Below, piece after piece: positions 32,703 to 47,761 of a stretch of 58,218 nucleotides of DNA. A model generated the notes under the pieces. The model did no database searches, was not told where the DNA came from, and worked only from the letters and a program-made list of their open reading frames with translations. A program made the position numbers and the translations under genes. This DNA is from Bacteroidia bacterium (GTDB lineage: Bacteria > Bacteroidota > Bacteroidia > Flavobacteriales_D > Sanyastnellaceae). How positions within the stretch are numbered: the first letter of the stretch is position 1; each line of letters opens with the position of its first letter. The stretch spans positions 1 through 58,218 of the forward strand of contig JAUICJ010000018.1 of assembly GCA_030427925.1 (NCBI GenBank). The letters are read 5' to 3'.

Positions 32703-33593
32703 ATGAAGTTCATTTCCACGTCTGCCTTGTCGAAAACCATCGGCATCAGCTCCAAGGAACTCTTCCAAAAGCTCCAAGAGGCGGGATTGATCGAACGAAA
32801 GGCAGAGGATTGGGTATTGACCACGCAAGGAGAGTCGGCAGGAGGAAAGATGATGAATCACCCCAAATTTGGTCAGTACGTCACGTGGCCAGAAGATTTC
32901 AATCCTGACGCGGCGGGGTCAACGAAACAAAAAGCAACGCTCACTTCGACGAAAGTGGGCAGCAACTTTGGCCTATCTGCGCAGCGAATGAATTCCATCT
33001 TTTCCGAATTGGGCTGGATTGCGAAAAACACCGTTTTGGGTGGTGGATGGGATCTAACGGATTCGGGAAAGCGCGTGGGGGGCGCCCAGGTGGAGTCATC
33101 AAATGGTTTTCCTTATGTGATTTGGCCTGAGAACATTACCGCCAACAAATGGCTCCTAGATTCCATCAACGCGGCAACCGGAACGTCGTATGCGCAAGTC
33201 GTTGAGACCAGCGCCTTCGAACTGGATACGGATGAGTTTCGAAAAAAGCACCCCGCGAACTATCGGACACAAGACGGGCACCGAGTACGTTCTCGGGCTG
33301 AGGCCATGATTGACGACTACCTCTACACAAATGGCATCGCGCACGCCTACGAGAAGCGCCTTCCCATTTTAGACCATGAAGTGATTTCGGACTTCTACAT
33401 TCCGGAAGGCCGCGTTTACATTGAATTTTGGGGAATGGAGGAGAATGAACAATACCGCGACCGGAAATTGAAGAAGCTGGAAATTTATCGCAGCAACGAC
33501 ATCAAGCTGATCGAAATGAACAACCAAGATTTGGAGCGGCTGGATGATGTGTTGCCCGTGATGCTTCGGAAGCACGGTGTACGGATCGGGTGA
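32703..33593 (+). CDS. Winged-helix repeats plus PD-(D/E)XK nuclease-like protein
   Basis: 296 residues. Two related winged-helix-like segments come first: residues about 5-50 (TSALSKTIGISSKELFQKL to VLTTQGE) and about 80-130 (TSTKVGSNFGLSAQRMNSIF to DLTDSGKRVGG), similar in pattern to phage antirepressor/KilAC-type DNA-binding modules. Residues about 195-296 resemble a PD-(D/E)XK domain: VRSRAEAMIDDYL (Glu), HEVISDFYIP (Asp) and VYIEFWGM (Glu), then a Lys-rich helix with KLKKLEIYR. This matches small restriction-like nucleases of the 'SRAE...DF...IE.WG' type. The canonical K after E-x is replaced by Trp, as in some families. It is inferred to cut DNA in a sequence- or structure-guided way, probably in defence. 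It converges with the SNF2 operon. Confidence 0.7.
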   Translation: MKFISTSALSKTIGISSKELFQKLQEAGLIERKAEDWVLTTQGESAGGKMMNHPKFGQYVTWPEDFNPDAAGSTKQKATLTSTKVGSNFGLSAQRMNSIFSELGWIAKNTVLGGGWDLTDSGKRVGGAQVESSNGFPYVIWPENITANKWLLDSINAATGTSYAQVVETSAFELDTDEFRKKHPANYRTQDGHRVRSRAEAMIDDYLYTNGIAHAYEKRLPILDHEVISDFYIPEGRVYIEFWGMEENEQYRDRKLKKLEIYRSNDIKLIEMNNQDLERLDDVLPVMLRKHGVRIG

Positions 33594-33691: not shown

Positions 33692-36600
33692 TTATGAATC
33701 ATGGGATTGAGCGGCATTCCATTGGTGGCGTTCCAAGACGTTCAATTCCTCAATGTCAGCGTCTTCGAAGGGGTGAGCAACAGCAAGGTACCATCGGTCA
33801 TCGCACTGCAATCGCTGAACGTGAGGAGCGTTCAAATGCGCGATGGCCTGTCTTTTCAAGTCATGGGGAGGCGATGAAGGTGTGGATTTCCAAATTTGGC
33901 TGCCTCTGAGGGACCAGGTTTGGGGATGGAACTTCTGTTCGCCCGGAACCAACTTCAACTGGGCTTCGGGAAGATGGGCATGGGCGCCATCGGAGACATC
34001 GCTCAGGGGCAAGTCCCGCGCGCCTTGGTGCGCCCGAAGTTCCCAGTCGTCAGCCGTTTTCACGAGGTGCTCGAGGCACGCGAAGAGCTCGGATTGGGCC
34101 ACCCTCACGAAATCGGAATCCACCACCGGGAGTTCGGAAATGGCCTGCACGCCCCAGACGGAACTGGGTTCGCGCTGCGGGTCGTAGCCGATGCGGACGC
34201 CGAGGGTGGAAAACGCGCCCACGTTTTGGAAGTGCTTGAACTCGTCGCGCTTGCCGAGGGGGCTGGTGAGGCGGATCAGGCTCCGTTCTTGTTGGTCCAG
34301 GGCGGTGGCGAGGGGATCGAGGAGGAATTGGATTTGGACGGGTTGCTGGCGGCCGTTGGGGAGGCGGCAGTCGAGGAGGAAGGCGGATGGGGTTTGGCCG
34401 GGTAAGGCGAGGACACGCTGGACCCATGGGTGGCCGGTCAAGGTGTTCAAGAGGACATCCATGCGCTGGGCGAACGGCTTTTGGGCAGGCAAAAGCGCGG
34501 GAGCTGTGATGCCATTGAAAGCCGCAGCGTGCACCGGATACGGGTCGGCAAAGGCGTGGCGGTCGGCGGTGGGGCGGTTGAGGAAGTCGCGCCAGTTTTC
34601 CCAGCCCGAATCGTGGGCGAACGAGTCGGACTCCGAGGCGAGGACGGCGCCCTTGTCGATGAGGCGTTCGGCGGCGCGCTTGCGCTTCACGAACCGGCCG
34701 AGATGCTCCTCGTCCACGGTGCCGAGCAAGACGGGGTAACGCACGTCCAACTCGCCGCTGCCCGCGTCCAGGTTGCGTTCCACGAGGCTGAACATGCGAT
34801 CGATGCGGCCGATGCGCTGCTCGTTGTCGCCCGCCGTCCAAGCTGCTCCGTAGTGGATGACCCGCCGGCAGAAGTACTGCAGGTTGACGCCCTCCTGAAG
34901 AACCGAAGTTGCCACCAGCACGTCCGGGTAGAACGGGGTGTTGAAGCATTTCAAGGCGTGCTTCGAACCGACGCCGCCGCGAAAGGGGTAGCAAGGGCGG
35001 GCGTGACGGAAGTGCTCTTCCCAATTGTGCCGGAAGATGCTGGCGTTTGAGGAGAGCTCGAACACTTTGCTTGCGAGGGTCTCGAAGTGCAGGATGCTTT
35101 CGATGATTTGGCCCCAAATCCGGCGCTTGCGGAAGCCTTGCTCGAACAAATCACAAAACGCTTTGTAGCCATTGACTCCCTCGCGATCCTTGATGTCGCG
35201 GTAAAGTTGGAACATCCACACCACGTCCGCCGAGGCGAGGAGCACGGCTTTCTCGACAAATCGCGCCAGAGATTCTTTGATCTCCGGGGCCATTTTCTCG
35301 TAACACCTCAGCGCGGCACTTTCAGGCTCCTCCTCTTGCAACGCAGAAATCAGCATCGTCCACAACGTGGGCAAGCCGGACTCCTTCTGGTCTGAACGCT
35401 CCAATTTTTCTGATTCAGACCGATATTCCGCCAGCCACTCCGACCCCTCGCCCAACCGGTGGAACGCCGCGGATTGGAAGTAGCGCTTGGTCCTCTTGCC
35501 ACTGCGCACGGCGTGGTAAATAGCCAGGTCATCGTAAGGCGCCGCCATGAAATCCGCCGCGGGCGAAAAGAACATCGCGAAGACACCCGGTTTCGAATTC
35601 GCGAACAGTTGCCGGAAGTTCGAAGCAGGGGTCGTGGAATGGGGGTCGCCTTTCTTGATCTTGAACCAAGAAAGCACCTCGCTGTCGGGAATGTGGTCGT
35701 CCTCCTCGTCGTTGGTGTCGCCCTCTTCGTCCGGCAATTCCAGCCCGCTCCCTTGCACGAACCGCTCCCGCGACCAGTCGCGCACGTTGCCATTCAACCC
35801 GAGTTCGCCAAGCAATGACCGATCGACCTGCTCCATCAGGCGCCGTGTGATTTCGTAGACCGAGGCAATGCGCCGGACGAAAACGAGGGCCTTGGGATCG
35901 CGTGCATCGAGCCCGTGCAGCTGACTCAGCAGGGCTTCGTACTTCGGGTGCCGCGGGCTTTCGTTGAAGATGTTTTGGAATTTTTCACCCAAATCCTGAA
36001 GCAGACCAGAATCGAAGCCTTTGTAAAAATCGGAGCCCCGGTTTTCTTGATCGTCCTCCTCTTCGGATGGTTGCTCTCCGGGCTTGGGCAGAAATTCCAC
36101 CCCTTCGAGGTACCGGATCATGCCCGAGACGCCGGAGTGGTGGCCTTTCTCTTCGAGTTTTTCGGCGACTTGCTGGGCCAACAGCGCTTGGTAAGCGCCG
36201 AAGAACGACTCCGCCAAGGGGTCGTCCTGAAAGTTCGAAGCGTCCGCGACTTCGTGCCGGTACTCGTATTTGTTCGCACCCCGCTCGCCCAGCCGACGCA
36301 ACCGGCGAATGCACAAGCGGTCCAGCACCTCCTTCGAACTTCCGGGGTCAGGCTGGAAATAGCGCAGCACGTTCCGCACGTCCTCGTTCGAACTGTGGTT
36401 CGGCGTGGCCGTCAAGAGGAGCACCCCGTCCGCCATGGGCGGCGCCACGCCTTCGCCGAAAAAGCACCGGACCGCTTCCGCACGGTACGAACCGCCATCG
36501 AAATGCCGCAGGTAATGCGCCTCGTCGATGATGATCAGGTCGAACGGCGGTTGCCCTTGCGCCATCAAGCGCTCCCGAATGAGCGACGCCATCCGTCCGT

Positions 36601-37165
36601 TCAGCCGGTCGTCATCACCGCTCCATTCCGCCACCAAATCCTCTCGGCCCCAAGCCTTCAACCGCTCCTGCCAACGCTCGCCCTGAATCAGCCCCGAAAA
36701 CGACGTGATTTTCCCCACGAGAAACCGAGGCCATTGCGCCTCAACCTGCTCCACCAATTCGAACAAATTCCCCACCTTCACCGCCGGCTTCACCGCCTCG
36801 CCGTGCCACCGCAACACCGCATCATCCCGCCGCACATGCCGCTGGATGAAGGCCGTGTACTCCGAAATCCAGTTCTCGGCCACCACCTCCCTCGGCGTCA
36901 AGACGAGGATGCGTGCGTGCGGTTTTTGTTGCCACAGCGCCGCGCACACCGCCAGCGACTGGATCGTCTTCCCCATGCCCACCTCATCGGCGATCAAGGC
37001 CACCCGGTGCTCGGAAATCAAGTTGAACGCGTGCGCCGCGCCTTCGACCTGCTTGTTGGGCATGCGGTTGTCCTCGGCGGAGGTAACGTACTGCCAGTCA
37101 TCGTCCGCAAGCCAAAAATTGACCAACCGCCCCAAATACTCCGGAGTAATGCGATTCCAATCCAT
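33692..37165 (-). CDS. SNF2/RapA-like superfamily 2 helicase
   Basis: 1157 residues from ATG at 37165, overlapping the stop of the PLD gene (TGATG); a GTG one codon upstream is possible. Motifs: Walker A ADEVGMGKT (about residue 60), DEAH in IIIDEAHYLR (about 211), TATP (about 258), and motifs V-VI in VLVATSVLQEGVNLQYF...QRIGRIDR (about 750-785). The arrangement with a long insert between the two RecA lobes matches RapA/SNF2-type translocases that work with nucleases in restriction and phage defence. The C-terminal 370 residues have no recognised domain. It ends a three-gene operon read from 40274 and is likely the DNA-translocating motor of that system. Confidence 0.88.
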   Translation of the reverse strand: MDWNRITPEYLGRLVNFWLADDDWQYVTSAEDNRMPNKQVEGAAHAFNLISEHRVALIADEVGMGKTIQSLAVCAALWQQKPHARILVLTPREVVAENWISEYTAFIQRHVRRDDAVLRWHGEAVKPAVKVGNLFELVEQVEAQWPRFLVGKITSFSGLIQGERWQERLKAWGREDLVAEWSGDDDRLNGRMASLIRERLMAQGQPPFDLIIIDEAHYLRHFDGGSYRAEAVRCFFGEGVAPPMADGVLLLTATPNHSSNEDVRNVLRYFQPDPGSSKEVLDRLCIRRLRRLGERGANKYEYRHEVADASNFQDDPLAESFFGAYQALLAQQVAEKLEEKGHHSGVSGMIRYLEGVEFLPKPGEQPSEEEDDQENRGSDFYKGFDSGLLQDLGEKFQNIFNESPRHPKYEALLSQLHGLDARDPKALVFVRRIASVYEITRRLMEQVDRSLLGELGLNGNVRDWSRERFVQGSGLELPDEEGDTNDEEDDHIPDSEVLSWFKIKKGDPHSTTPASNFRQLFANSKPGVFAMFFSPAADFMAAPYDDLAIYHAVRSGKRTKRYFQSAAFHRLGEGSEWLAEYRSESEKLERSDQKESGLPTLWTMLISALQEEEPESAALRCYEKMAPEIKESLARFVEKAVLLASADVVWMFQLYRDIKDREGVNGYKAFCDLFEQGFRKRRIWGQIIESILHFETLASKVFELSSNASIFRHNWEEHFRHARPCYPFRGGVGSKHALKCFNTPFYPDVLVATSVLQEGVNLQYFCRRVIHYGAAWTAGDNEQRIGRIDRMFSLVERNLDAGSGELDVRYPVLLGTVDEEHLGRFVKRKRAAERLIDKGAVLASESDSFAHDSGWENWRDFLNRPTADRHAFADPYPVHAAAFNGITAPALLPAQKPFAQRMDVLLNTLTGHPWVQRVLALPGQTPSAFLLDCRLPNGRQQPVQIQFLLDPLATALDQQERSLIRLTSPLGKRDEFKHFQNVGAFSTLGVRIGYDPQREPSSVWGVQAISELPVVDSDFVRVAQSELFACLEHLVKTADDWELRAHQGARDLPLSDVSDGAHAHLPEAQLKLVPGEQKFHPQTWSLRGSQIWKSTPSSPPHDLKRQAIAHLNAPHVQRLQCDDRWYLAVAHPFEDADIEELNVLERHQWNAAQSHDS

Positions 37166-38976
37166 CACGAAATGAGCTGTTCAATTTCCACGAGCCACCG
37201 TTTCCACGAATCGCCCGCCACCCCTTCTGGTCGCGGCTGCTCCGGGAGGGGGATGGCCTCGATTTGCTGTGCGGCTTCGACTTTCGAGTTGAAGGAGGCG
37301 ATGATGGCGTTTGTTTTTTGGCATACCAACCACGCGTAAACGCCCTCGAGCAACTCCGTCGAGACCAAATCGCGCAACTCCACCACGCTGCCCGGCTGCT
37401 GGTAGCCCAAGCGCAAGCATTCCACCTTCGCGTCCGCCTTCAGCGCGTCCACCTGCTGCTTCATGTAGGCCAACGCGAGGAAGGTCGAAAACCACTCGTG
37501 GTGGCTCTGATTCGCCGAAACCGGCGACCACTCCCCCGTCACCGCATCCACGTTGCGCGGGGTCGAAATGGGGCGCACCAAGTCCGTCCGGCTGCCCGGA
37601 TCGCGGGTCAGCCAAGCTTGGAACATGTGGCTCAGGTTGTCGAACCGGCGCGAAGGCCGCAACTCCAGCCCGGTTTCGAGGAGGTACCCGGAAAATAACA
37701 GTTCGTCTTCGCGGTACACGTGGAACTGGCGATTCAACGTCAACGTGCGGTTCGATGCGCCCAGCGGAATCCCGGCCTTCAACGCTGAGTGGCTCACCCG
37801 CTCGCCGCTGGGCAACTCGAATTCGAGTGCCCCGTCGTGCTCAGCGGACTCGGGGGCAATCCGTGTCAACCGCATGGTCCGACGGATCCAATCCAATTGA
37901 ATTTCCGCGGCCAGTGCGTAGTTCGGCAGCGACTTCATGTCCTCGTCCTCTTGCTCGTCCGGATCCGTGCTGACTGCCGGATTGCGCGAAGTCAGTGCGG
38001 CGCTTTGTCGGATTTGGTCGGCCTCCGCCTCGCTCAACGTGAAGACCAATCCGGCTTCCACGTTGTTGCGCCCGTTCGTCGCCCAGCCGAGCGCGGAATC
38101 CGTGAAATTCCAGGAGCCGACCGCCAAACGGTTTGGACTGAGCCACAGCTTCGCGTGCGTCAGGGCGTGCTCGTTTTCGTTCGCCTGCCCTTGGTGAAAC
38201 TGGACGCGCTCCATCGCCAGCAACGCCTCGACCGACTCGCCATCGAGCCGGATTTTGCCTTCATTGCTGAGGTCCGGAACGAGGATGAGCTCCTTGATCC
38301 GCGCCATTCGTTCGCGGATTTTCTCCACCATGCCTTGGGAAAAGTAGGGGCTCCAGACCGCCATCCAGGCCAAATCCGAATTCCCCCAACCCATCGCATC
38401 CTCGAACGTCTCCTCCGCCCCGGTGTACCCCAGCCGCCACGTCGCCGTTCCCGTCAGCGGCGGCGACTTCGGCAGTTCCCCTCCATGGAATCCCCGGAAA
38501 AACGCCCTCAAATCCGCCACCTGCTCGGCGGTCTCCACGCGGGTCAACACAACGGACTCCCGGTTCCGCGCGTACCCCCCGTACGTCAGGTTCGCCGACC
38601 CCGCCATCACAAACCACTCCCCCGCCGCCGTCTCAAACCACGCCACCTTCGGATGGAACACCCCGTGCGCACAGTCGCCGGCCACGTCCCCGGGGTGCAC
38701 GGGGTGCGCGGAGAAGGTGGTTTGCTTGGGGCGGCCGGTTTGGTATGCCCCACGGAAATCGTGAAACACCCGCACGTCAACGGAATCCACTTCCAGCTGC
38801 TCGTTCAGGGGCTCCAAATCCTGCGACGCCGCCGGCAATTCCGCCACCAACAAAATCGGCAACACGTGCCGCTCAAAAAACGACACGTCGAACACGAACG
38901 TGGTGAACCACGCCCGCCGAATGCCATGCTCGGTCGCAAAAGCGCGCAACCGATTCAAGATGGAGAGCTCACTGCT
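37165..38976 (-). CDS. Phospholipase D-like nuclease, operon partner of the helicase
   Basis: 603 residues. The open frame extends further upstream, but ATG at 38976 overlaps the stop of the previous gene as ATGA, so this start is chosen. Two HKD half-sites are visible: HPK...GSANLT (about residues 105-127) and HAK...GSWNFT (about 272-290). Together they can form one PLD active site in a single chain. In such nucleases the two His attack and protonate the DNA phosphate. The C-terminal half has no recognised domain. PLD nucleases paired with SNF2-type helicases occur in several defence systems (for example DISARM-like and related loci). It overlaps both neighbours, so translation is coupled. 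Confidence 0.85.
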   Translation of the reverse strand, partial: SSELSILNRLRAFATEHGIRRAWFTTFVFDVSFFERHVLPILLVAELPAASQDLEPLNEQLEVDSVDVRVFHDFRGAYQTGRPKQTTFSAHPVHPGDVAGDCAHGVFHPKVAWFETAAGEWFVMAGSANLTYGGYARNRESVVLTRVETAEQVADLRAFFRGFHGGELPKSPPLTGTATWRLGYTGAEETFEDAMGWGNSDLAWMAVWSPYFSQGMVEKIRERMARIKELILVPDLSNEGKIRLDGESVEALLAMERVQFHQGQANENEHALTHAKLWLSPNRLAVGSWNFTDSALGWATNGRNNVEAGLVFTLSEAEADQIRQSAALTSRNPAVSTDPDEQEDEDMKSLPNYALAAEIQLDWIRRTMRLTRIAPESAEHDGALEFELPSGERVSHSALKAGIPLGASNRTLTLNRQFHVYREDELLFSGYLLETGLELRPSRRFDNLSHMFQAWLTRDPGSRTDLVRPISTPRNVDAVTGEWSPVSANQSHHEWFSTFLALAYMKQQVDALKADAKVECLRLGYQQPGSVVELRDLVSTELLEGVYAWLVCQKTNAIIASFNSKVEAAQQIEAIPLPEQPRPEGVAGDSWKRWLVEIEQLIS

Positions 38977-40274
38977 CATCGCAACACCCGCATCATCGAT
39001 TCGACGGAAGGCACGTAGTAACTCCGGCGCCACGGCAGGTCGCCCTCCTCGGCTTGAGCCGCCCCAGCGCGCATGTACTGCTGCTTGATGAGGCCGCCCG
39101 GCCCGATGCTCACCCACGTGATGCCCCCGCGTTCGTCCATCGTTTTTTGGTGGAATTGGACGAAGCCTTCGATCCAGTCTCGGTCGGTGCCGGGGGCGGT
39201 CAGCATGGCCCAAAGTTGCTCCAGCCGCGGGATGTGGATGCTCGTCCCCAGCCCCTGCTGGCTTGCGATGAACTTCCGCACGCGTTGTGCTGGGCCCGCG
39301 AGGTCTTCAACGGGTTTGCCGTTGGAGGCGAGCAGGTGATCGAAGAACCAGTCGACGTGGGCCAAAACCGGCTCCAGCCACAAAATGTCGCGCAGCTTCT
39401 GCTGCTCGCTCGGTTCCACCAGGCCCACGGCGCGCTGCAGCACGGCCTGCGGATCGATGGGCTGGCCGGCATCGAGCAGCCCACGCACCTGATGCGCGAT
39501 GCCGCCCGCCGCCCCGTCTTCCAGTCCGAGCTGCTTGCGCAACACGTGGCGCCACGCTTCGGGAACCGACGTGGTTTGGAAGGCCGCTTCCACGGCTTGC
39601 TCGTGTTCCTCGCGCAGGTCCGAGGGCAGGTCGGGGTATTGCTGCCCTTTGCGCGGGTCCGCCACCTCGAGCAGCGCCAGCACCGCGTCGCGGTAGCGTT
39701 TGAACGGGGTAGTGGTGGTGATGAGCTGCTCGATTTCACCCCAAACCGCTTCGTTTTCCGGACTTCGGGCAAACTGCACGTCAAAGAAGCCCATTTCGAT
39801 CATCGCCGCTTTGTACCGGCCTGTGTACCCCAATGCGAGTTGGCTTTTGAGCACGCCACGGTTCATCAACGGAATCAGCTCGTGCCCTTTTTGGGTCGCC
39901 AACACCCCTTTCAACTTTGACAACCCCAAGATGCCCAGCGAATCCACCGGCTTCCCCGTTTGTTCCAACTCGAGAAAGGCATGCGCCAGCAAATCCTCGG
40001 ACCAAATCAACAACCCCGCATAACCATCGAACCGCCCTTCCCACCCCTCATGACTCGGATGCGCCTCCAACCACGCGTGCACCGCCGAATGGTGCAACAC
40101 ATTGATCACAAGCGCCCGGGCATCCGTAGCCACTGAATTCAGTTTGCGATGAAAAATCCGCCGCGCATGCTCTTGCCAAATCACCAGCAACCCCATGGGA
40201 TCCACCGACCCCTCCTGGCTGACGCTCGGGTCGGGCGGCGAAAACAGGGCCTCGATGGAATCGAATGAAGTCAT
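38976..40274 (-). CDS. Unknown protein, first gene of the PLD-SNF2 operon
   Basis: 432 residues from ATG at 40274; it ends in an ATGA overlap with the PLD gene. No catalytic motif, signal peptide or membrane helix is seen. It is mostly helical. Features that may help in identification: DSLGILGLSKLKGVLATQKG (about residues 110-129) and LALGYTGRYKAAMIEMGFFD (about 146-165), which look like a DNA-binding helical region. The C-terminus contains WVSIGPGGLIKQQYMRAG. Its place at the head of the operon suggests a specificity or sensor subunit for the helicase-nuclease pair; this is inference. Not matched to a family I can name. Confidence 0.75.
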   Translation of the reverse strand: MTSFDSIEALFSPPDPSVSQEGSVDPMGLLVIWQEHARRIFHRKLNSVATDARALVINVLHHSAVHAWLEAHPSHEGWEGRFDGYAGLLIWSEDLLAHAFLELEQTGKPVDSLGILGLSKLKGVLATQKGHELIPLMNRGVLKSQLALGYTGRYKAAMIEMGFFDVQFARSPENEAVWGEIEQLITTTTPFKRYRDAVLALLEVADPRKGQQYPDLPSDLREEHEQAVEAAFQTTSVPEAWRHVLRKQLGLEDGAAGGIAHQVRGLLDAGQPIDPQAVLQRAVGLVEPSEQQKLRDILWLEPVLAHVDWFFDHLLASNGKPVEDLAGPAQRVRKFIASQQGLGTSIHIPRLEQLWAMLTAPGTDRDWIEGFVQFHQKTMDERGGITWVSIGPGGLIKQQYMRAGAAQAEEGDLPWRRSYYVPSVESMMRVLR

Positions 40275-40743: not shown

Positions 40744-41967
40744 CTACTCCTCAATCATTTCAGCTATTTCCATCTCATGGTGCAACACTTGTTCAATCAT
40801 CTTAATCATGCTTCCTACCAGCTCGTTGATTGTTGGAAAAACTTCATCCTCCACTCCAATCTCACTAACCCACTTGTAGAGATACAAGAAAGTATGAGTG
40901 TTGTTCTTGTTGGCATATTTGCAGAAGTTCCTGTCGCCTCCCCCTGGCGCAATTCGAAATTTTCCGGGCTCGTCGGAACTGTAGCCATCGCCAAGCGCAC
41001 TTTCAAGGTCTCCGTTCCAAAACCACAACTTCTCCTTAACCAGATTGCGAGCGAGGTTAATCGAGGTCTCGTAACTTCCGGACTCCACAAACTGTTTCAG
41101 GCGATTGCCTTGAAGCTGAACACCGATCTTCACTGCCTTACCCTTGGGAATCAGCAGCTTTATAGAGTTCAATCCCTGTGTTCTTGTGAATCCCGCTTCT
41201 ACTGAAACATCCGGTTGCGTTGCTCTCAGGTTTGTTGAAATTAATGCAGCTATCTTCTCATGATAAACTTTTGCTACAAGGTCATGTAATTTAACCGATG
41301 TCAATTGTTTATAATCGTTTTTTGCGTACAAGTTGTAACGCTGCATTCCGAAGTCATAACCATTTTGACGAAGACCAAAATGTTCGCAAATGTCCAATAA
41401 TTGATGGATAAATTTTTTGTACTCAATGATTACCACCTCTTCTATTCCGCCGTTATCGAATTGCATCGCCTCCAAATCGCTCAAGAAATTCATCAAATGA
41501 TGTTCATACGACTTGACATGCCAATCCAGCGCTTCAACCTCCACATCAGCATGTTGAATTAGCCTCAAAACGATCTTCTCTTTTACACCTTTTGACTTTA
41601 AAGAATCGTCGTATTTCTCAAGCTGATCCTTCGACACTAAACTCTTCACCTTGTTTTCGATGACGATAAACTCGGTACGGGATTCATTGAGTCTGAATTC
41701 GATCACGAGATCCATATTCCAACGCTCTCTGTGCACTTCAAACTCCTGAGGCACCGACAAGTCGATTCCGCCGTGATTGATTTCAAAGCTCTTGAAGAAA
41801 GCCTTGATGACCTCCATTTCTCCTCCCTTCGATTTCAACCCCAACAACCAACCTATGATGTTGCTATGAAAAAGCTCTTTTGATGCTAGAGACGCTCGAT
41901 ACATGAAGTTCTTATCCAAATCTCCCAGGATTTCCTTCAATACGGTAGGTGATTCGTGGTTCGCCAT
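40744..41967 (-). CDS. PD-(D/E)XK nuclease family protein (PDDEXK_4-like)
   Basis: 407 residues. The N-terminal half matches the pattern of PF14281-type proteins: ELFHSNIIGWLLGL (about 32-45), NMDLVIEF with the metal-binding Asp (about 83-90), and FIVIENKVKSLVSKDQLEKY with the E-x-K (about 100-120). The second half is alpha/beta and has no named domain. Such proteins are found singly in defence islands and beside restriction systems; activity on phage DNA is expected but not shown. The gene is distinctly AT-richer than the operon on its left, suggesting separate acquisition. It lies 218 bp downstream of mcrC on the same strand. Confidence 0.8.
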   Translation of the reverse strand: MANHESPTVLKEILGDLDKNFMYRASLASKELFHSNIIGWLLGLKSKGGEMEVIKAFFKSFEINHGGIDLSVPQEFEVHRERWNMDLVIEFRLNESRTEFIVIENKVKSLVSKDQLEKYDDSLKSKGVKEKIVLRLIQHADVEVEALDWHVKSYEHHLMNFLSDLEAMQFDNGGIEEVVIIEYKKFIHQLLDICEHFGLRQNGYDFGMQRYNLYAKNDYKQLTSVKLHDLVAKVYHEKIAALISTNLRATQPDVSVEAGFTRTQGLNSIKLLIPKGKAVKIGVQLQGNRLKQFVESGSYETSINLARNLVKEKLWFWNGDLESALGDGYSSDEPGKFRIAPGGGDRNFCKYANKNNTHTFLYLYKWVSEIGVEDEVFPTINELVGSMIKMIEQVLHHEMEIAEMIEE

Positions 41968-42185
41968 TTTTTTTCAGTTGTCAAGAGCTAAAATAGAAGA
42001 ATAAAAACGAATCCGGAAGCAATCTTAGATTCTTCCCAGAAAGAAAATCCCTCTGATATTGGTTGGGACTTAAAGAAGCTTTGTTCGCGAGAACAATCAA
42101 GAAATTGTCAAGTCTTGCACCGCAAGAGATCAGCAACGAAACCTGTTTCAAGGGCACCAGACTTGGTTCAACCAATGGAATGCCA

Positions 42186-43457
42186 TCAGCTCAACCTAAG
42201 CAAGAGTTTAAAAATCGACTTTCCGATTTCCAAGTTCAGATTCCCATCATCGGCCAGCACGCTCAACAATGCCAGTTTGCACGAATGAAGGGGAACAGGC
42301 TTGCCATCAAGTCCAGTTTCGACCTGCGACCAGTAATGCCCCAAGAACTCCTTGTTCCCAGACGTGGTTGGGTACAAGAGCATGCTGAGATTGGTAGACC
42401 AGTACTCGTTGTAAACGAACATCTGCTTGAGGTCGTCATCGCTGGGCCGCGGATGACGCGTGTCGAGGACTTTCCATTTCGTGTCGATGACGAAGGTGGT
42501 CGAGGAATCGCCAGTCTTTCTCGTGACGACCAAGTCAGGGCGCACGGTGTTCGACTCCCAAAACGGTTTGCTCTGCTGCGGAAGAACTTCGAACTCAGGC
42601 GGGGCGGACCGCACGAGCATGCGGTAGATGTATTCTTCCCAGAGCGCGTTCATGTCGAACAGAAGGGCGAGCATTTGGTCCTGGCCTGACTGGATGCTCG
42701 GGGAATAGTGGAGCAGCAGCATTCGGGCGATGCTGAGGGCGCGCTGGTAGCGGCTGACTCCGCGGTCGTCGCTCAGGCGGTCGAAATGGTGGGCTTCGAT
42801 GCGCTCCTGGGTGTGGAAGGGGAAGGCGTCGATGAGCTGGGCGGTCCGCTGGCTCAGCGTGGGGCTGCGGGTGAAGTCGGCCACGGCGTGCAGGCCCTCG
42901 AGAAGGATTTGGTTGATCGGGTTGACGGGGTCGTAGACCTGGTGTTGGGTGAAGAACCGCTCTTGGTGAATGAGGTTGCGCTGGAGGTGTTGGCCGAACA
43001 GGATTTGACCTTTGAGGCTCGTGGCATTCCCCGCCTTCCGCCGGTATTTCTTGACCAAACCCTGTCTCAGCAACTGCTCCGCCTCGTCCAAATACAGCTC
43101 GAAGTACAACTCCAAAACCGAATGGTGCCGCCTTCGCAAATTCGCCTCCGAAATCGCATTCACATTGACCTTCCTGCAAATCCGCAGCATGTCCAACAAC
43201 ACACCGTGCCACTGGTCCAAATCGCCGGGCTCGCGATCCGATTTCGGCAACACCTCGATGGTCAGGTCACCGATCTGGATGACGCCGACGTAGCTCGTGA
43301 ACTTGACGCCGTCCCGAATGCCCGTGAAGTACTTGTTGTCGTTCCGATCATTGAAATCGTACAACCGCGCCAACTCCGACCGCTCCAGCTTCTGCCCTTG
43401 GGCATCCTCGTAGAGCGTCAACTTATCGTGTTCGAAAACGCGGAACTGGCGGGCCAT
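42186..43457 (-). CDS. mcrC: McrC-like nuclease subunit of a McrBC restriction system
   Basis: 423 residues, starting 3 bp after the mcrB stop. The N-terminal DUF2357/McrC-type region includes YVGVIQIGDLTIEVLPK and LLDMLRICRKV. The C-terminal PD-(D/E)XK site is seen as VRPDLVV (about residue 305) and FVIDTKWK (about 322-328). McrC binds the McrB ring and cuts DNA that carries modified cytosines. Length and order match McrBC. It is translated from the same message as mcrB. Confidence 0.93.
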   Translation of the reverse strand: MARQFRVFEHDKLTLYEDAQGQKLERSELARLYDFNDRNDNKYFTGIRDGVKFTSYVGVIQIGDLTIEVLPKSDREPGDLDQWHGVLLDMLRICRKVNVNAISEANLRRRHHSVLELYFELYLDEAEQLLRQGLVKKYRRKAGNATSLKGQILFGQHLQRNLIHQERFFTQHQVYDPVNPINQILLEGLHAVADFTRSPTLSQRTAQLIDAFPFHTQERIEAHHFDRLSDDRGVSRYQRALSIARMLLLHYSPSIQSGQDQMLALLFDMNALWEEYIYRMLVRSAPPEFEVLPQQSKPFWESNTVRPDLVVTRKTGDSSTTFVIDTKWKVLDTRHPRPSDDDLKQMFVYNEYWSTNLSMLLYPTTSGNKEFLGHYWSQVETGLDGKPVPLHSCKLALLSVLADDGNLNLEIGKSIFKLLLRLS

Positions 43458-43460
43458 GCC

Positions 43461-45755
43461 TCAAGCGAGGATTTGCTCGAAGTCCCAGGTGTCCGGGCTC
43501 GTGAGTCGATACACCTTGCGCTCCTGCAGCTCATTGACCAGCACGTGGTCGTAGTCGTGCCCCTTCGCAAACTTCACCTCTTTGTCGTTCACAACCTCCA
43601 CGAAAGACGGGCCTAAAATCAAACTCAGTTTGCCGAGGTCGGCGAAGAAGTACTCTTGAAGGAGCGGGATGATTTTGTCCAGAAATGAGCGCCTCAAATC
43701 CTCGAGCGTTTTCACATCCATCAGGTAGGAATGGCCGATGAGGCAATCTTTATCGCGCAGCAGCTCGATGCGCCCGTTGATGGACTTCAACAACGCAGGC
43801 AAGTTCACTTTCACACGCTCTTCTTCAAGTATGCCGTTGTCTTCCGCGAGTTTACCGTGCGCCGCAATCACATCCGGATCAGGCGCCATTTCCGTGAATG
43901 CAAACCGACGACGCAACGCCGAATCCAGCGCTTCCACACTGCGGTCTGCTGTGTTCATGGTCCCGATGATGTACACATTTTTCGGCACCGAGAACTTCGT
44001 CTTCGAGTAGGGTAAAACGACTTCCAACGACTCCTCTGCCCCCGCTCGTTTATTCGGCTCGATCAACGTGATGAGCTCGCCAAAAATGGCAGAAACATTG
44101 CCGCGATTGATCTCATCAATGATGAGGACGTAGTTCTTTCCTTCGTTGGCCGCTGCCAACCTGCACATCTTTTTGAAAATGCCTTCTTCGACGTCGTACT
44201 TCAAATACGAGTCTCCCTCTTTCGGCCTTGATGGCTTGATTCCTTCGATGAAGTCCTCGTAACTCATGCTTTGGTGAAAGGTGGTGAAGCCGATTTGGCC
44301 CTCTTCGTGCTCGCCTTCCGAGATGAGCAACTCATTGAACCGCTCGCGGATTGCATGTCGGTGGTCTTGGTTTTCGGCGAAAAAATCCGAATCAACAATT
44401 TTCACCGCTTCATTGATGGTGTTGAATGTTTTCCCCGTACCTGGAGGGCCAAAAAAGATTTGGTTGAGTTCACTCGTCACCACACTTTCGACGGGTTGGT
44501 TGAGGAAGTGAATGAACTGATCAATTGCAGCTGAATAGAAGTACTTCTTACCGTAAGAAGCCGCTTCTGGATGATGGTATTTCTCCGTCCGCTGATTGGC
44601 TTTCAAATCGTCGTAGAGTGATTTGAGCTGCGCCTGGTTTTGGCCATATACCTTAACGCCAAAATGCAACTCAAGCAGCTCGATTGCCCGCACATAAGAT
44701 GAAGCGGTTGATGTCCTTACGCCTCGCTCCTCCAGCAGCCAAGACCGAAAGGATTCTTTCATTTCTGATACCAAATCTTCATTCAGCTCCGATTCCAAGT
44801 TTAAGTACGTTCCCACAGCATAAATGAAATCCTGAACAAGCAAGTTAGAATCGTCGTCCAGGGCCAAATCTTCGGGAATTCGGGCCCGATTAGCCTCCAT
44901 GAGTTGTGTGTTCGCAACCAGAACTCCCTTCAGCGCCTCACACATGGACATGAAATCAAACACCACCTCGTAAGAGCCCTTCTTCGCCGAACCGTACTTC
45001 GGCCAAAACTCAGTGAGCTCACAAAACGTGTTGAACATACCATTCTTGTACAAGAAGTAATTTTTCGGGTAACGCATGGTCAAATACGCCATCATCGCCC
45101 GGTCAGATTGGTAGTGACTTATTGGATCACCCGGCCGGTATTCTCCCAAGTACCACTTGCCGAATTCTTCAAAATTCAGCAAGCGCCGCTCCAGTTCGAT
45201 CGCCTCATCAAACAACTCCCGCAATGCCCGCGAAGTTCGTTCTGGATTCGCCTTTGCCATTTCCAATAGCATCTTCAACGGCAGAAAATGCTGTCCCGAC
45301 AGGAGGTTAGCCGACTTAGAAAAAGCCTCTCCGATTACATCGAGCACATTTGAAGCATCGAGTTCATCTGTCCAATGACTTTGAAACCACTTCACCGCCT
45401 CCCATTTGTACAGCTCGTTGTACGATGGGTCAATCCCACCATCTGAAATCAACTTGATGTAGCGATTTACCCACTTCTCCAGGTGATCTGGATTTGCTCT
45501 GGGAATCAATCGGAAACCAAGCCGATCAAATGCCTTGAAACAGTCGGTTTTACGAGCACATCTGAAGTTATCTAACAGAGGTTCCCCGGTAGCTCGTTGA
45601 TTCGCGTAGGCCATCACCGGCTTCGGCGGATAAAGCTCTCCATCCACCTCAACGTCAAATCCCGTTGATTCACCAAACCCATCGGGTAGGCCTCGAGCTT
45701 GAAAGTCGAGCGCTGCCTCTCTCACATGAGCCTCTGTAACCTTTTTAAACTTCAT
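43461..45755 (-). CDS. mcrB: McrB-like AAA+ GTPase of a McrBC restriction system
   Basis: 764 residues from ATG at 45755 (an in-frame TTG precedes it directly). Residues about 1-85 (YPPKPVMAYANQRATGEPL and CFKAFDRLGFRLIPR) resemble the N-terminal head found in ScoMcrA-type restriction proteins. Residues about 310-420 resemble a phage-integrase SAM/core-binding module (SFRSWLLEERGVRTSTASSY) and could contact DNA. The AAA+ motor has Walker A GPPGTGKT (about 436), Walker B LIIDEINRGN (about 545) and the McrB signature MNTADRS (about 600). McrB binds modified DNA, hydrolyses GTP and drives McrC. The modified base recognised cannot be read from the sequence. Confidence 0.93.
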   Translation of the reverse strand: MKFKKVTEAHVREAALDFQARGLPDGFGESTGFDVEVDGELYPPKPVMAYANQRATGEPLLDNFRCARKTDCFKAFDRLGFRLIPRANPDHLEKWVNRYIKLISDGGIDPSYNELYKWEAVKWFQSHWTDELDASNVLDVIGEAFSKSANLLSGQHFLPLKMLLEMAKANPERTSRALRELFDEAIELERRLLNFEEFGKWYLGEYRPGDPISHYQSDRAMMAYLTMRYPKNYFLYKNGMFNTFCELTEFWPKYGSAKKGSYEVVFDFMSMCEALKGVLVANTQLMEANRARIPEDLALDDDSNLLVQDFIYAVGTYLNLESELNEDLVSEMKESFRSWLLEERGVRTSTASSYVRAIELLELHFGVKVYGQNQAQLKSLYDDLKANQRTEKYHHPEAASYGKKYFYSAAIDQFIHFLNQPVESVVTSELNQIFFGPPGTGKTFNTINEAVKIVDSDFFAENQDHRHAIRERFNELLISEGEHEEGQIGFTTFHQSMSYEDFIEGIKPSRPKEGDSYLKYDVEEGIFKKMCRLAAANEGKNYVLIIDEINRGNVSAIFGELITLIEPNKRAGAEESLEVVLPYSKTKFSVPKNVYIIGTMNTADRSVEALDSALRRRFAFTEMAPDPDVIAAHGKLAEDNGILEEERVKVNLPALLKSINGRIELLRDKDCLIGHSYLMDVKTLEDLRRSFLDKIIPLLQEYFFADLGKLSLILGPSFVEVVNDKEVKFAKGHDYDHVLVNELQERKVYRLTSPDTWDFEQILA

Positions 45756-45890
45756 CAATCAAGCATTCGTAAACGAGAAATTGAAAGCTGAAAGTACGTA
45801 ATTCTGATTCCCGTGTTGGGCAAAGATGTTCTTAAGAGGCGCGTACGAACTATAGCAAGGACAAATTGAATCGATTGTCGACTACAATCC

Positions 45891-47042
45891 TCACCTTCTG
45901 TCTCTCCAAACATTGCGAGACAGTCCCTTTGAATGACCGCATAACACGCTCATTTCCTCCGAATACTTCGCGATGTAGCCTGGCTCATTCCTGCGCTGCT
46001 CGTCGGATTTAGGGGCAAAATGGAACTCCCCGAAAAAGGGACATGCCTGACATTCCTTGGCCCTAACCGTTTCATCTTTGAGTTTCGATTTTGGACAATA
46101 CACTTTTGCGTCGCTCCCATTGAACGTGTAGACCTTCTTTTGAGTGAATCCGGCCGCTAATTGCTGGGTCAAGAATTCTTGGGAGCGTTGCTTCTGATGA
46201 CGCGCAAGCCACTTCTGAGCTCGCAGACCAATGTTCTTAGAAACGCGCTTGATGATTGCATCTTCAATCTGGTCTCGCTTTGCGCTGTGCACCCAATGTC
46301 TCGGGAACCCAAACTTGGACTGCAGTTCTTCCAACATACCCTGCCGATTGATTTGGCCTGATTCATCCAACTGAACAAAACGGGACAGGTCAATCTCCAG
46401 GCACGATCGGTTCATTGCCTGGATTCGCGCCTTCTTATCTGGACTTACCGGGTTCGTGAAGTGGAATTCGACCAGCAACTTGGGTAACCCTTGATTCAAT
46501 CCGATTGCATCCGCAATGATTTGTCCGCCCTCATCGGACGATTCGAGCCGCACTTCCAAATCCACCGCACCGAAATCATGCAATCGCGCCTTGAACTTTT
46601 CATTCAACTCTTCATTGGCCTTCTTCGTCCCCTCGTCCAACAATTTTTCGATCAACTCCGGTGGCAATTCAAGGGGGATGACCCTCGCGAGTGCTCGTTC
46701 TAAGTTCTCGTCCCACTCCCACCTCGGTTGAATCTCTGGCAACCAAAGGCGCTTGGTCTGGGCAAAAACGCGTTTGGCGAGCTTGTGAATTGCGCTTTCA
46801 ATCGCATGCTGCGGATTCGCCCCCGTCGTCAATGCGAAATGCGGCGCCCGTTGTCCTGGCAACAAGGGCTCGCCCCTTTTCTTTCCCTTGTTCTTTGCAA
46901 TCAATGGCTCATCTGTTCCCGGCAAAACGCAATTGCAAGCCAAACCATTGGCCACATCGTAAATTGACTTCATTTCTCCAGTGGAGGCGCATTCTGCGAT
47001 TTGGAGAAGGTTTGCCTTCTGGTGGTGTGGTGAAGAATTCAT
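45891..47042 (-). CDS. CoiA-like nuclease family protein
   Basis: 383 residues. The N-terminal part follows the CoiA pattern: TGEMKSIYDVANGLACNC (about 21-38), where the usual second CxxC is lost (CVLPGTD), then HFALTTG and ESAIHKLAKRVF. A putative catalytic stretch KLLVEFHFTNPVSPDKKARI (about 190-209) followed by CLEIDLSRF matches the E-x...EIDL nuclease core of these proteins. The C-terminus has a Cys cluster (C..K..... then CQACPFF, then CGH) that may bind zinc. CoiA-like proteins occur in competence and defence loci. Residues 1-23 fit the family, so the upstream Met is kept. It is divergent from the Nudix/helicase operon. Confidence 0.7.
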   Translation of the reverse strand: MNSSPHHQKANLLQIAECASTGEMKSIYDVANGLACNCVLPGTDEPLIAKNKGKKRGEPLLPGQRAPHFALTTGANPQHAIESAIHKLAKRVFAQTKRLWLPEIQPRWEWDENLERALARVIPLELPPELIEKLLDEGTKKANEELNEKFKARLHDFGAVDLEVRLESSDEGGQIIADAIGLNQGLPKLLVEFHFTNPVSPDKKARIQAMNRSCLEIDLSRFVQLDESGQINRQGMLEELQSKFGFPRHWVHSAKRDQIEDAIIKRVSKNIGLRAQKWLARHQKQRSQEFLTQQLAAGFTQKKVYTFNGSDAKVYCPKSKLKDETVRAKECQACPFFGEFHFAPKSDEQRRNEPGYIAKYSEEMSVLCGHSKGLSRNVWRDRR

Positions 47043-47148
47043 TCCTTGGGTTCTCAGTTTACTCTTGCGTCATATTTGGAAACAGATCGAGCGCGTTCAC
47101 ACTTCAATGGCGTGGCATTTTCCGTGCCAAATTCAAACCTTGAACATC

Positions 47149-47171
47149 ACATCGTAATCTATTTACGATGT
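47149..47171. promoter_or_regulatory. Inverted repeat, candidate operator in a divergent promoter region
   Basis: Perfect 9-bp arms ACATCGTAA (47149-47157) and TTACGATGT (47163-47171) with a 5-bp spacer. It sits in the 302-bp spacer between the CoiA-like gene (minus, start 47042) and the Nudix gene (plus, start 47345). A dimeric repressor would fit, but no regulator gene is adjacent. Confidence 0.45.
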
Positions 47172-47344
47172 ACCGTACCGCTCCGATATTATCAGATTTT
47201 TGTGGGCCTAGGCGCTTCGAAATGGGTGAAGCCTCGCCCTTCAGTTCTTATGAATGCGTGATGACTCAAAGTCTCGTTAGCAATTCCCGAGAAAGGCTGC
47301 GGAAAATTTTTGGATCCCCTGGAGAAAACCTCGAGCTTCAGCCC

Positions 47345-47761
47345 ATGAAAACGATTGAAGTCGTGGCCGCGGTTATTCAAGATGGCTCCGAGGTGTTGTG
47401 CACCCAACGAGGAGCAAACAAACTCCCCTACATCCACCTCAAGTGGGAGTTTCCGGGGGGCAAAATCGAAGAAGGAGAAGACCATGCCACTGCGCTGGCA
47501 CGCGAAATCCGAGAAGAACTGAAAGTCGAGGTTCAGGTGTTGGAACGATTGGAAAAAGTCGATCACGTGTACCCGGATTTCAGGCTCATCATGCACCCGT
47601 ATCGATGCGCGTTTGCCGAGCCGGGAGGCCGGGAACGCCTGACCTTGACGGAGCATCACGCGGCCGCTTGGATGAAGCCCGCTTCGACTGAGTTTCAGGA
47701 ATTGGATTGGGCCGCAGCCGACGTTCCAATTGTCCAACAACTGCTTGCGAGCCAGCCATGA
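47345..47761 (+). CDS. Nudix hydrolase, MutT-like
   Basis: 138 residues from ATG at 47345; the open frame goes 177 bp further upstream, but the conserved Nudix fold begins at MKTIEVVAAVIQDGSEVLCT. The Nudix box is intact: GGKIEEGEDHATALAREI followed by REEL (about residues 38-60). MutT-type enzymes hydrolyse oxidised or modified NTPs to monophosphates. The stop overlaps the next ATG (ATGA), so it is coupled to the PLD-helicase. Nudix genes are often found next to DUF3427 helicases (from memory), which suggests a function in the same process, perhaps signal or modified-nucleotide removal. Confidence 0.88.
   Translation: MKTIEVVAAVIQDGSEVLCTQRGANKLPYIHLKWEFPGGKIEEGEDHATALAREIREELKVEVQVLERLEKVDHVYPDFRLIMHPYRCAFAEPGGRERLTLTEHHAAAWMKPASTEFQELDWAAADVPIVQQLLASQP

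What the first reader, a model, noticed from the sequence alone, without database searches (positions are those of the whole stretch)
33692..40274. Three-gene coupled operon: unknown 432-aa protein, PLD nuclease, SNF2-type helicase
Seen: ATGA and TGATG overlaps join all three genes; the helicase and two-HKD nuclease are clearly intact. Known: helicase plus PLD pairs occur in DISARM and related systems, but drmA/B (DUF1998) and a methyltransferase are absent here. The first gene has no recognised domain. Inference: a methyltransferase-free helicase-nuclease defence system with a new specificity subunit.
Basis: partly seen in the sequence, partly recalled or inferred. Interest (0 to 1): 0.75.

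Follow-up and report, generated by a model that had tools for sequence, protein, structure and literature searches.

The report
Untested nuclease-helicase phage-defence operon (PDC-M27)
Three overlapping genes encode a DNA-cutting enzyme, a DNA motor and a helper protein that stay together in many bacteria as a catalogued but untested anti-virus system, and the helper looks like a distant cousin of a protein that heads a second such system.

Summary
In detail: genes A (38976-40274), B (37165-38979) and C (33692-37168) lie on the minus strand, joined by ATGA and TGATG overlaps. The trio is not unlisted: all three proteins match PADLOC's candidate system PDC-M27 over most of each profile (A 3e-53, B 9e-86, C 2e-188). 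A's neighbourhoods are not random: in 26 of 28 other loci B follows A and in 23 of 28 C follows B; the exceptions are contig ends. No DUF1998 (MZB) gene and no match to three methyltransferase families lies on this contig, so it is not DISARM. B is a tandem-site PLD nuclease with eight active-site positions invariant in 24 of 24 rows. What is new here: A is a remote relative of DUF6361/ZacA (hhalign 86.5% with an intermediate family, 53.9% directly, 0 of 100 column shuffles reach either). DUF6361 heads its own PLD-helicase trios. PDC-M27 is thus probably one branch of a wider class, with divergent trios whose A proteins PADLOC scores only weakly (1.5e-9 to 1.5e-12). Best guess: a DNA-surveillance nuclease-translocase that needs no methyl mark. 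No activity was tested.

The parts
38976..40274 (-). Gene A, 432 aa, PDC-M27A; mostly helical model
   Evidence: PADLOC PDLC04552 3.2e-53 over 9-431; AF2 pLDDT 79.7, pTM 0.77
39780..40229 (-). N-terminal part of A (about residues 16-165) similar to the DUF6361/ZacA superfamily; includes the DPLG-like motif (DPMG here)
   Evidence: hhalign; controls
39810..39851 (-). Conserved segment of A (residues 142-155; L142, Q145, G149, G152, R153, Y154 invariant in the 25-row alignment)
   Evidence: overlaps one of the four low-confidence segments of the model (146-151 under pLDDT 50; 129-140 next to it). In the wider 11-row alignment only G149 and Y154 of it stay invariant
37165..38979 (-). Gene B, 604 aa, PLD-family nuclease, PDC-M27B
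   Evidence: PADLOC PDLC04553 9.2e-86; Pfam PLDc_2 1.1e-10
37945..38979 (-). Tandem PLD barrel of B (residues 1-345)
   Evidence: AF2 pLDDT 81.5; VIA-align Z 20.6, rmsd 4.2, 305 aligned to Tdp1 1rff_B
38590..38655 (-). First active half-site: H109-x-K111 ... N130
   Evidence: invariant in 24 of 24 rows
38107..38157 (-). Second active half-site: H275-x-K277 ... N291
   Evidence: invariant in 24 of 24 rows
33692..37168 (-). Gene C, 1158 aa, SNF2-type helicase/translocase, PDC-M27C
   Evidence: PADLOC PDLC04556 2.2e-188, PDLC04554 8.6e-183
36965..36991 (-). Walker A motif ADEVGMGKT of C (60-68)
36512..36526 (-). Motif II DEAHY of C (215-219)
34796..34819 (-). Motif VI QRIGRIDR of C (784-791)
33692..34528 (-). 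C-terminal extension of C (881-1158), present in 8 of 22 helicases aligned; no Pfam domain found

Best explanation
The trio is an intact PDC-M27-type operon: a three-protein DNA-surveillance machine against phages and other foreign DNA. Shown by sequence: three overlapping genes kept together in the same order elsewhere; B has two complete PLD half-sites in one chain; C has the SNF2 ATPase motifs; A is modelled as helical, matches no enzyme family in Pfam, NCBIfam or PADLOC, and its N-terminal 150 residues resemble DUF6361/ZacA, which heads a second PLD-helicase trio. Inferred: C moves along double-stranded DNA using ATP; A is the adaptor or sensor that couples C to B and decides when to fire; B cuts by the metal-independent phosphohistidine chemistry of PLD enzymes (recalled). 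With no methyltransferase found beside it, self is probably spared by DNA state (free ends, replication or repair intermediates, damage) and not by a methyl mark, as described for Hachiman and in part for DISARM.
For: PADLOC match of all three. Gene order kept in 26 of 28 (A-B) and 23 of 28 (A-B-C) loci, the rest cut by contig ends, in genomes titled as Bacteroidota, beta- and gammaproteobacteria, a planctomycete MAG and a spirochaete MAG and on plasmids. Pairwise identities of A, B and C correlate at r 0.97-0.98 over 19 trios, 0 of 5000 permutations as high. Active-site residues invariant. A-DUF6361 link with controls. Defence neighbours in the window: PDC-S69 5e-100, SauUSI-like type IV enzyme 1.5e-181, McrC 1.4e-64. 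Neighbours elsewhere include type I RM genes (87 of the 240 neighbours were given). DNA-state sensing precedents: PMC12278908 and PMC9142583 (abstracts).
Against: No experiment. Correlated identities also follow from shared descent and do not prove a complex. No A-B-C complex was predicted. A's model has no useful PDB match (best Z 3.9), so the adaptor role rests on context. A related two-gene form (A-like plus PLD) has no SNF2 gene annotated after it in 4 plasmid loci, so the motor may not be essential in the class. Self/non-self logic is inference only.
Confidence: 0.5

Rival explanations
1. A modification-dependent (type IV) restriction system: a split analogue of SauUSI in which the three parts recognise modified phage bases and cut.
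For: SauUSI combines a PLD nuclease, helicase motifs and a C-terminal domain in one chain and cuts modified DNA with ATP (PMC3874153, passages). A SauUSI-like gene and McrC/McrB-like genes sit in the same island. No methyltransferase found beside the trio.
Against: No DUF3427 and no modified-base reader domain in the Pfam lists of A, B or C; C is SNF2-type. But the C-terminal part of B (346-604) and the extension of C are unassigned, so a reader could hide there.
Confidence: 0.2
2. Accessory module of type I restriction-modification that borrows its methylation for self-protection.
For: The related DUF6361 trio of L055 and the two-gene form of L058 lie inside type I RM operons. Single type I methyltransferase or specificity models match up to 4 of 87 scanned neighbours of M27 loci.
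Against: No fourth gene recurs in more than 5 of 28 loci (many flanks are short). No N6_Mtase on the window's contig; the own genome's three are on C5 and C30.
Confidence: 0.1
3. Not defence but DNA repair: B is a Tdp1-like phosphodiesterase that clears protein-DNA adducts, with C as a remodeller.
For: Among the best solved matches to B are Tdp1 and PLD3/4; a related B in L048 passes Pfam's Tyr-DNA_phospho cut-off (24 vs 22 bits).
Against: Patchy: M27A gives one convincing genome in 395 of the window's phylum and 1 of 369 in the class of L016's genome, that one being the seed genome itself; both are lower bounds, see full report. Also found on plasmids and among defence genes. Phosphatidylserine synthase scores nearly the same (Z 20.3), so the Tdp1 likeness is the general tandem-PLD fold.
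Confidence: 0.08

Closest known systems
PDC-M27 (PADLOC-DB 2.0.0 phage defence candidate)
   Same: All three profiles match over most of their length; same three genes in the same order in relatives
   Different: No difference found; the window's C also fits the long helicase model (PDLC04554, 1217 positions)
ZacABC (PADLOC; ZacA = DUF6361)
   Same: Same architecture: DUF6361 protein, PLD, SNF2-type helicase; remote similarity of the parts
   Different: ZacA profile does not hit A; ZacB 6.9e-9 and ZacC 4.4e-21 are weak
DISARM
   Same: A PLD nuclease and an SNF2-like helicase (DrmC, DrmD)
   Different: No MZB/DUF1998 or tested methyltransferase family on the contig; DrmC and DrmD scores far under NCBIfam cut-offs (27.7 vs 133, 84.1 vs 610)
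SauUSI-type type IV restriction enzyme
   Same: PLD nuclease plus helicase motifs
   Different: One chain with DUF3427; here three genes without DUF3427. The island has a separate SauUSI-like gene at 47707-50652
DUF499-centred BREX-related (Hma) systems, type 2
   Same: HKD nuclease with Swi2/Snf2 helicase (PMC12839542, sections 28 and 31 read)
   Different: They have a DUF499 ATPase and N6-methyltransferase; neither is found among the ten window proteins scanned
Hachiman (HamAB)
   Same: Works-like only: a sensor helicase restrains and releases a nuclease (PMC12278908 abstract)
   Different: HamA is a DUF1837 nuclease (section title); no HamA hit for B in PADLOC

Membership tests
PDC-M27 | M27A protein | tested here: met
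   PDLC04552 3.2e-53, residues 9-431, profile 5-455 of 460
PDC-M27 | M27B PLD protein | tested here: met
   PDLC04553 9.2e-86, residues 18-572, profile 15-595 of 635
PDC-M27 | M27C helicase | tested here: met
   PDLC04556 2.2e-188; PDLC04554 over residues 2-1086 of 1158
PDC-M27 | Anti-phage activity | not testable with these tools
   PDCs are described as mostly unvalidated (PMC12988326, passages)
ZacABC | ZacA/DUF6361 profile match | tested here: not met
   no ZacA hit at E up to 1 in 22 A members; only profile-profile similarity
ZacABC | PLD gene followed by SNF2-type helicase gene | tested here: met
   ZacB and ZacC profiles hit only weakly
DISARM | DUF1998 (MZB) protein | tested here: not met
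   the only MZB match in the genome is on contig C34; the window is on C47
DISARM | DNA methyltransferase in the unit | tested here: not met
   PF02384 only on C5 and C30; PF01555 and PF00145 none in the genome. Other methyltransferase families were not searched
DISARM | DrmC and DrmD equivalog scores | tested here: not met
   27.7 vs 133 and 84.1 vs 610 bits
SauUSI-type type IV | DUF3427 domain | tested here: not met
   none in A, B or C; present in 47707-50652
DUF499-centred BREX-related | DUF499 ATPase and N6-MTase beside the helicase | tested here: not met
   none among ten window proteins; the one MTase_I hit, on the McrC protein, is at chance level (E 0.054)

The most novel reading that the evidence does not exclude
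A and DUF6361/ZacA are branches of one sensor superfamily with a 'DPLG' N-terminal domain, not linked in any paper I could find. It partners tandem-site PLD nucleases in at least four lineages: PDC-M27, the divergent L042 and L046/L047 trios, Zac, and a form with no SNF2 gene of its own, from bacteria to a haloarchaeal plasmid. A plus B would be the minimal sensor-cutter pair, and the motor an exchangeable add-on, perhaps borrowed from a neighbouring type I RM or Zorya operon.
Probability: 0.5. Interest if true: 0.6.

Novelty: new member of a known kind. Interest (0 to 1): 0.42.

Why it matters
The trio itself is a catalogued candidate. If the wider reading holds, several separately listed or unlisted systems are one class, whose divergent A proteins PADLOC's model scores only weakly, and a direct question opens: does the A protein decide when the PLD enzyme cuts, and what DNA state does it sense without a methyl mark?

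Tried and rejected
DISARM, SauUSI and DUF499-type membership were rejected on defining features (see Membership tests). Scans that found no relative: genome contigs with the single A sequence, viral contigs with A1, phage records. The fold search of A gave no usable match: Foldseek best E 0.2; VIA best Z 3.9, rmsd 6.5, 97 aligned, within what the tool calls common for helical models; this does not show a new fold. PDB sequence search with A's profile: lamin and a designed protein, E 0.09 and 0.17. The extension of C hit pentatricopeptide-repeat proteins at E 2e-4 or worse over 36 residues with no stretch passing alone, judged chance. Hits of SspF (2 members, 7e-4), JAB (1, 0.004) and PDC-M41A (1, 0.014) among 22 A members were not followed. 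M27A hits in G194 and G082 (E 4e-4 and 7e-4) both have stops inside and were judged spurious; a look at G194's ORFs showed nothing like A to the eye. The single-sequence hhalign of A12 against L048's protein was weak (8.4%); only the family profile made it convincing. Literature: PDC-M27 and DUF6361 gave no paper and the zac terms only unrelated ones; the library says it holds no bioRxiv collection and lacks most subscription journals, so this is not proof of absence. The original PDC preprint is recalled, not seen. Papers seen: PMC12839542 (passages and sections 28, 31), PMC12458937 (passages), PMC12988326 (passages), PMC13239085 and PMC12584637 (passages), PMC3874153 (passages), PMC12278908 and PMC9142583 (abstract and outline); others in search listings only.

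Full report
WHAT IS THERE. The three ORFs are on the minus strand: A 38976-40274, B 37165-38979, C 33692-37168. A and B share ATGA and B and C share TGATG. The trio's genes have G+C 0.61-0.62; the PD-(D/E)XK gene next to it has 0.43 and the McrB-like gene 0.50, so the island looks patchwork.

WHAT THE PROTEINS ARE. PADLOC matches all three to candidate system PDC-M27 over most of each profile. Pfam and NCBIfam give A nothing above cut-off. B is a PLD-family protein; its AF2 model (pLDDT 81.5) places residues 1-345 in a tandem PLD barrel, Z 20.6 with Tdp1, rmsd 4.2 over 305 residues, tied with other tandem PLDs. H109, K111, N130, E141, H275, K277, N291 and E308 are invariant in 24 of 24 rows. 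In C the key SNF2 residues are invariant in 22 of 22 rows; 8 of 22 carry a C-terminal extension of about 270 residues in which Pfam finds no domain.

NEIGHBOURHOOD TEST. A profile of three A proteins found 26 loci in the species-level genome collection; two plasmid loci had been found before and one more was near-identical to the second. Of the 28 loci analysed, 26 have B right after A and 23 have C after B; the 2 and 5 exceptions are contigs that end 1 to 1693 bases after A. In 25 of 26 the A end and the homologous B start lie within -17 to +4 bases; the other, L027, has a broken A. Identities of A, B and C over 19 trios correlate at 0.97-0.98, 0 of 5000 permutations as high; this fits co-transfer, but shared descent also raises it. 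No fourth gene recurs in more than 5 of 28 loci. Mean pairwise identities are 0.37 (A), 0.35 (B) and 0.44 (C), so A is not more variable than B.

DISTRIBUTION. In 395 genomes of the window's phylum (not named by the tool) M27A reaches E 0.001 in three, of which only the own genome is convincing. In 369 genomes of the class of L016's genome only that seed genome hits. These are lower bounds: one search missed the A proteins of G002 and G111, which do match M27A in a direct scan (9.3e-11 and 1.5e-9). The system is rare and patchy, as mobile defence tends to be.

A WIDER CLASS. A second locus in the genome of L028 (L042) holds a divergent trio of 424, about 690 and 1502 aa: M27A 1.5e-12, M27B 4.7e-28, M27C 2.7e-82. 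M27B at E <= 1e-8 in the phylum found four of 395 genomes, the own one included. Two of the others (L046, L047) hold trios with A-like proteins of 379 and 384 aa, a PLD and a helicase (M27C 1.1e-55 and 2.2e-65). The last (L048) holds a PLD after a 532-aa protein with a weak ZacA hit (4.4e-5). ZacA is DUF6361: three DUF6361 proteins match ZacA at 3.5e-91 to 2.4e-137. In 8 of 8 DUF6361 loci examined, ZacB-like and ZacC-like stretches follow (L051-L057, L062): both genomes, and six plasmids picked by eye from the 43 and 45 records, one of them haloarchaeal. In L057 ZacA is annotated as three pieces and in L054 the PLD as two. The 532-aa type is followed by a PLD in 5 of 5 loci. In the 4 plasmid loci of it no SNF2 gene is annotated after the PLD, but three have another motor close by: L058 a type I R gene next, L060 a Zorya operon with an SNF2 gene upstream, L061 a DEAD/DEAH helicase upstream. 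Only L059 has none in view. L048's contig ends too early to say.

A IS PROBABLY A REMOTE DUF6361 RELATIVE. The profile of 11 A proteins (A12, which includes the three divergent ones) against the 532-aa type gives probability 86.5, E 4.6e-6; against DUF6361 53.9, E 1.3e-4; DUF6361 against the 532-aa type 79.9, E 1.4e-5. Controls: a ZorC protein 0.16; an unrelated profile 0.1-0.2; reversed profiles 0.2-0.8; 0 of 100 column shuffles reach the observed score in any of the three. Against: a single 532-aa sequence gave only 8.4, and all three probabilities are short of the 90-95% usually asked (recalled). The shared gene context is the needed second line of evidence. The alignment covers A residues 16-165 and lines up the DPLG motif and the G-x-x-G segment.

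FOLD AND ROLE OF A. The AF2 model is nearly all helix (pLDDT 79.7). The conserved stretch 142-155 overlaps one of its four low-confidence segments. That would fit a segment that orders on binding, but a 22-row alignment may simply be too shallow. In the wider alignment only G149 and Y154 of it remain invariant. The fold searches gave no useful match.

HOW IT PROBABLY WORKS. C moves on DNA, A senses or couples, B cuts. With no methyltransferase of the families searched on the contig, self is probably spared by DNA state. Precedents: HamAB, activated by DNA damage, and DrmAB, opened by 5' overhangs (abstracts). All of this paragraph is inference.

VERDICT. PDC-M27 is a catalogued, untested candidate. 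What is added is the DUF6361 link and the divergent trios, which may turn isolated entries into one class. On re-checking, the probability of the bold reading was set from 0.55 to 0.5, because three of the four two-gene loci have another motor gene nearby.

Noticed in passing
window 40744-50652 and 32703-33593: Defence island: PDDEXK_4 protein, McrC, McrB-like AAA protein, SauUSI-like PLD-helicase-DUF3427, and PDC-S69 (5e-100) flank the trio.
   Followed up: partly
window 45891-47042: 383-aa ORF upstream of the McrB-like gene with no hit in PADLOC, Pfam or NCBIfam at E 0.1.
   Followed up: no
L042 3107-10906: Divergent second trio in a Paraburkholderia genome that also carries the ordinary PDC-M27.
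   Followed up: yes
L046 5022-11393 and L047 3604-10206: Trios of the window's phylum with 379/384-aa A-like proteins, missed by the genome search with M27A; both have a 161-aa ORF nearby that looks Vsr-like to the eye (not searched).
   Followed up: partly
L055 and L058: A DUF6361 trio and a two-gene relative lie inside type I RM operons, between S and R genes.
   Followed up: no
L060: Two-gene relative directly downstream of a Zorya operon.
   Followed up: no
L032 9941-12317; L031 1925-3405; L027: Gene A is interrupted by about 900 bases (L032) or split over two frames (L031, L027), so some copies look decayed.
   Followed up: no
window 33692-34528: C-terminal extension of the helicase occurs in 8 of 22 relatives, inside and outside Bacteroidota, with no Pfam domain.
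   Followed up: partly
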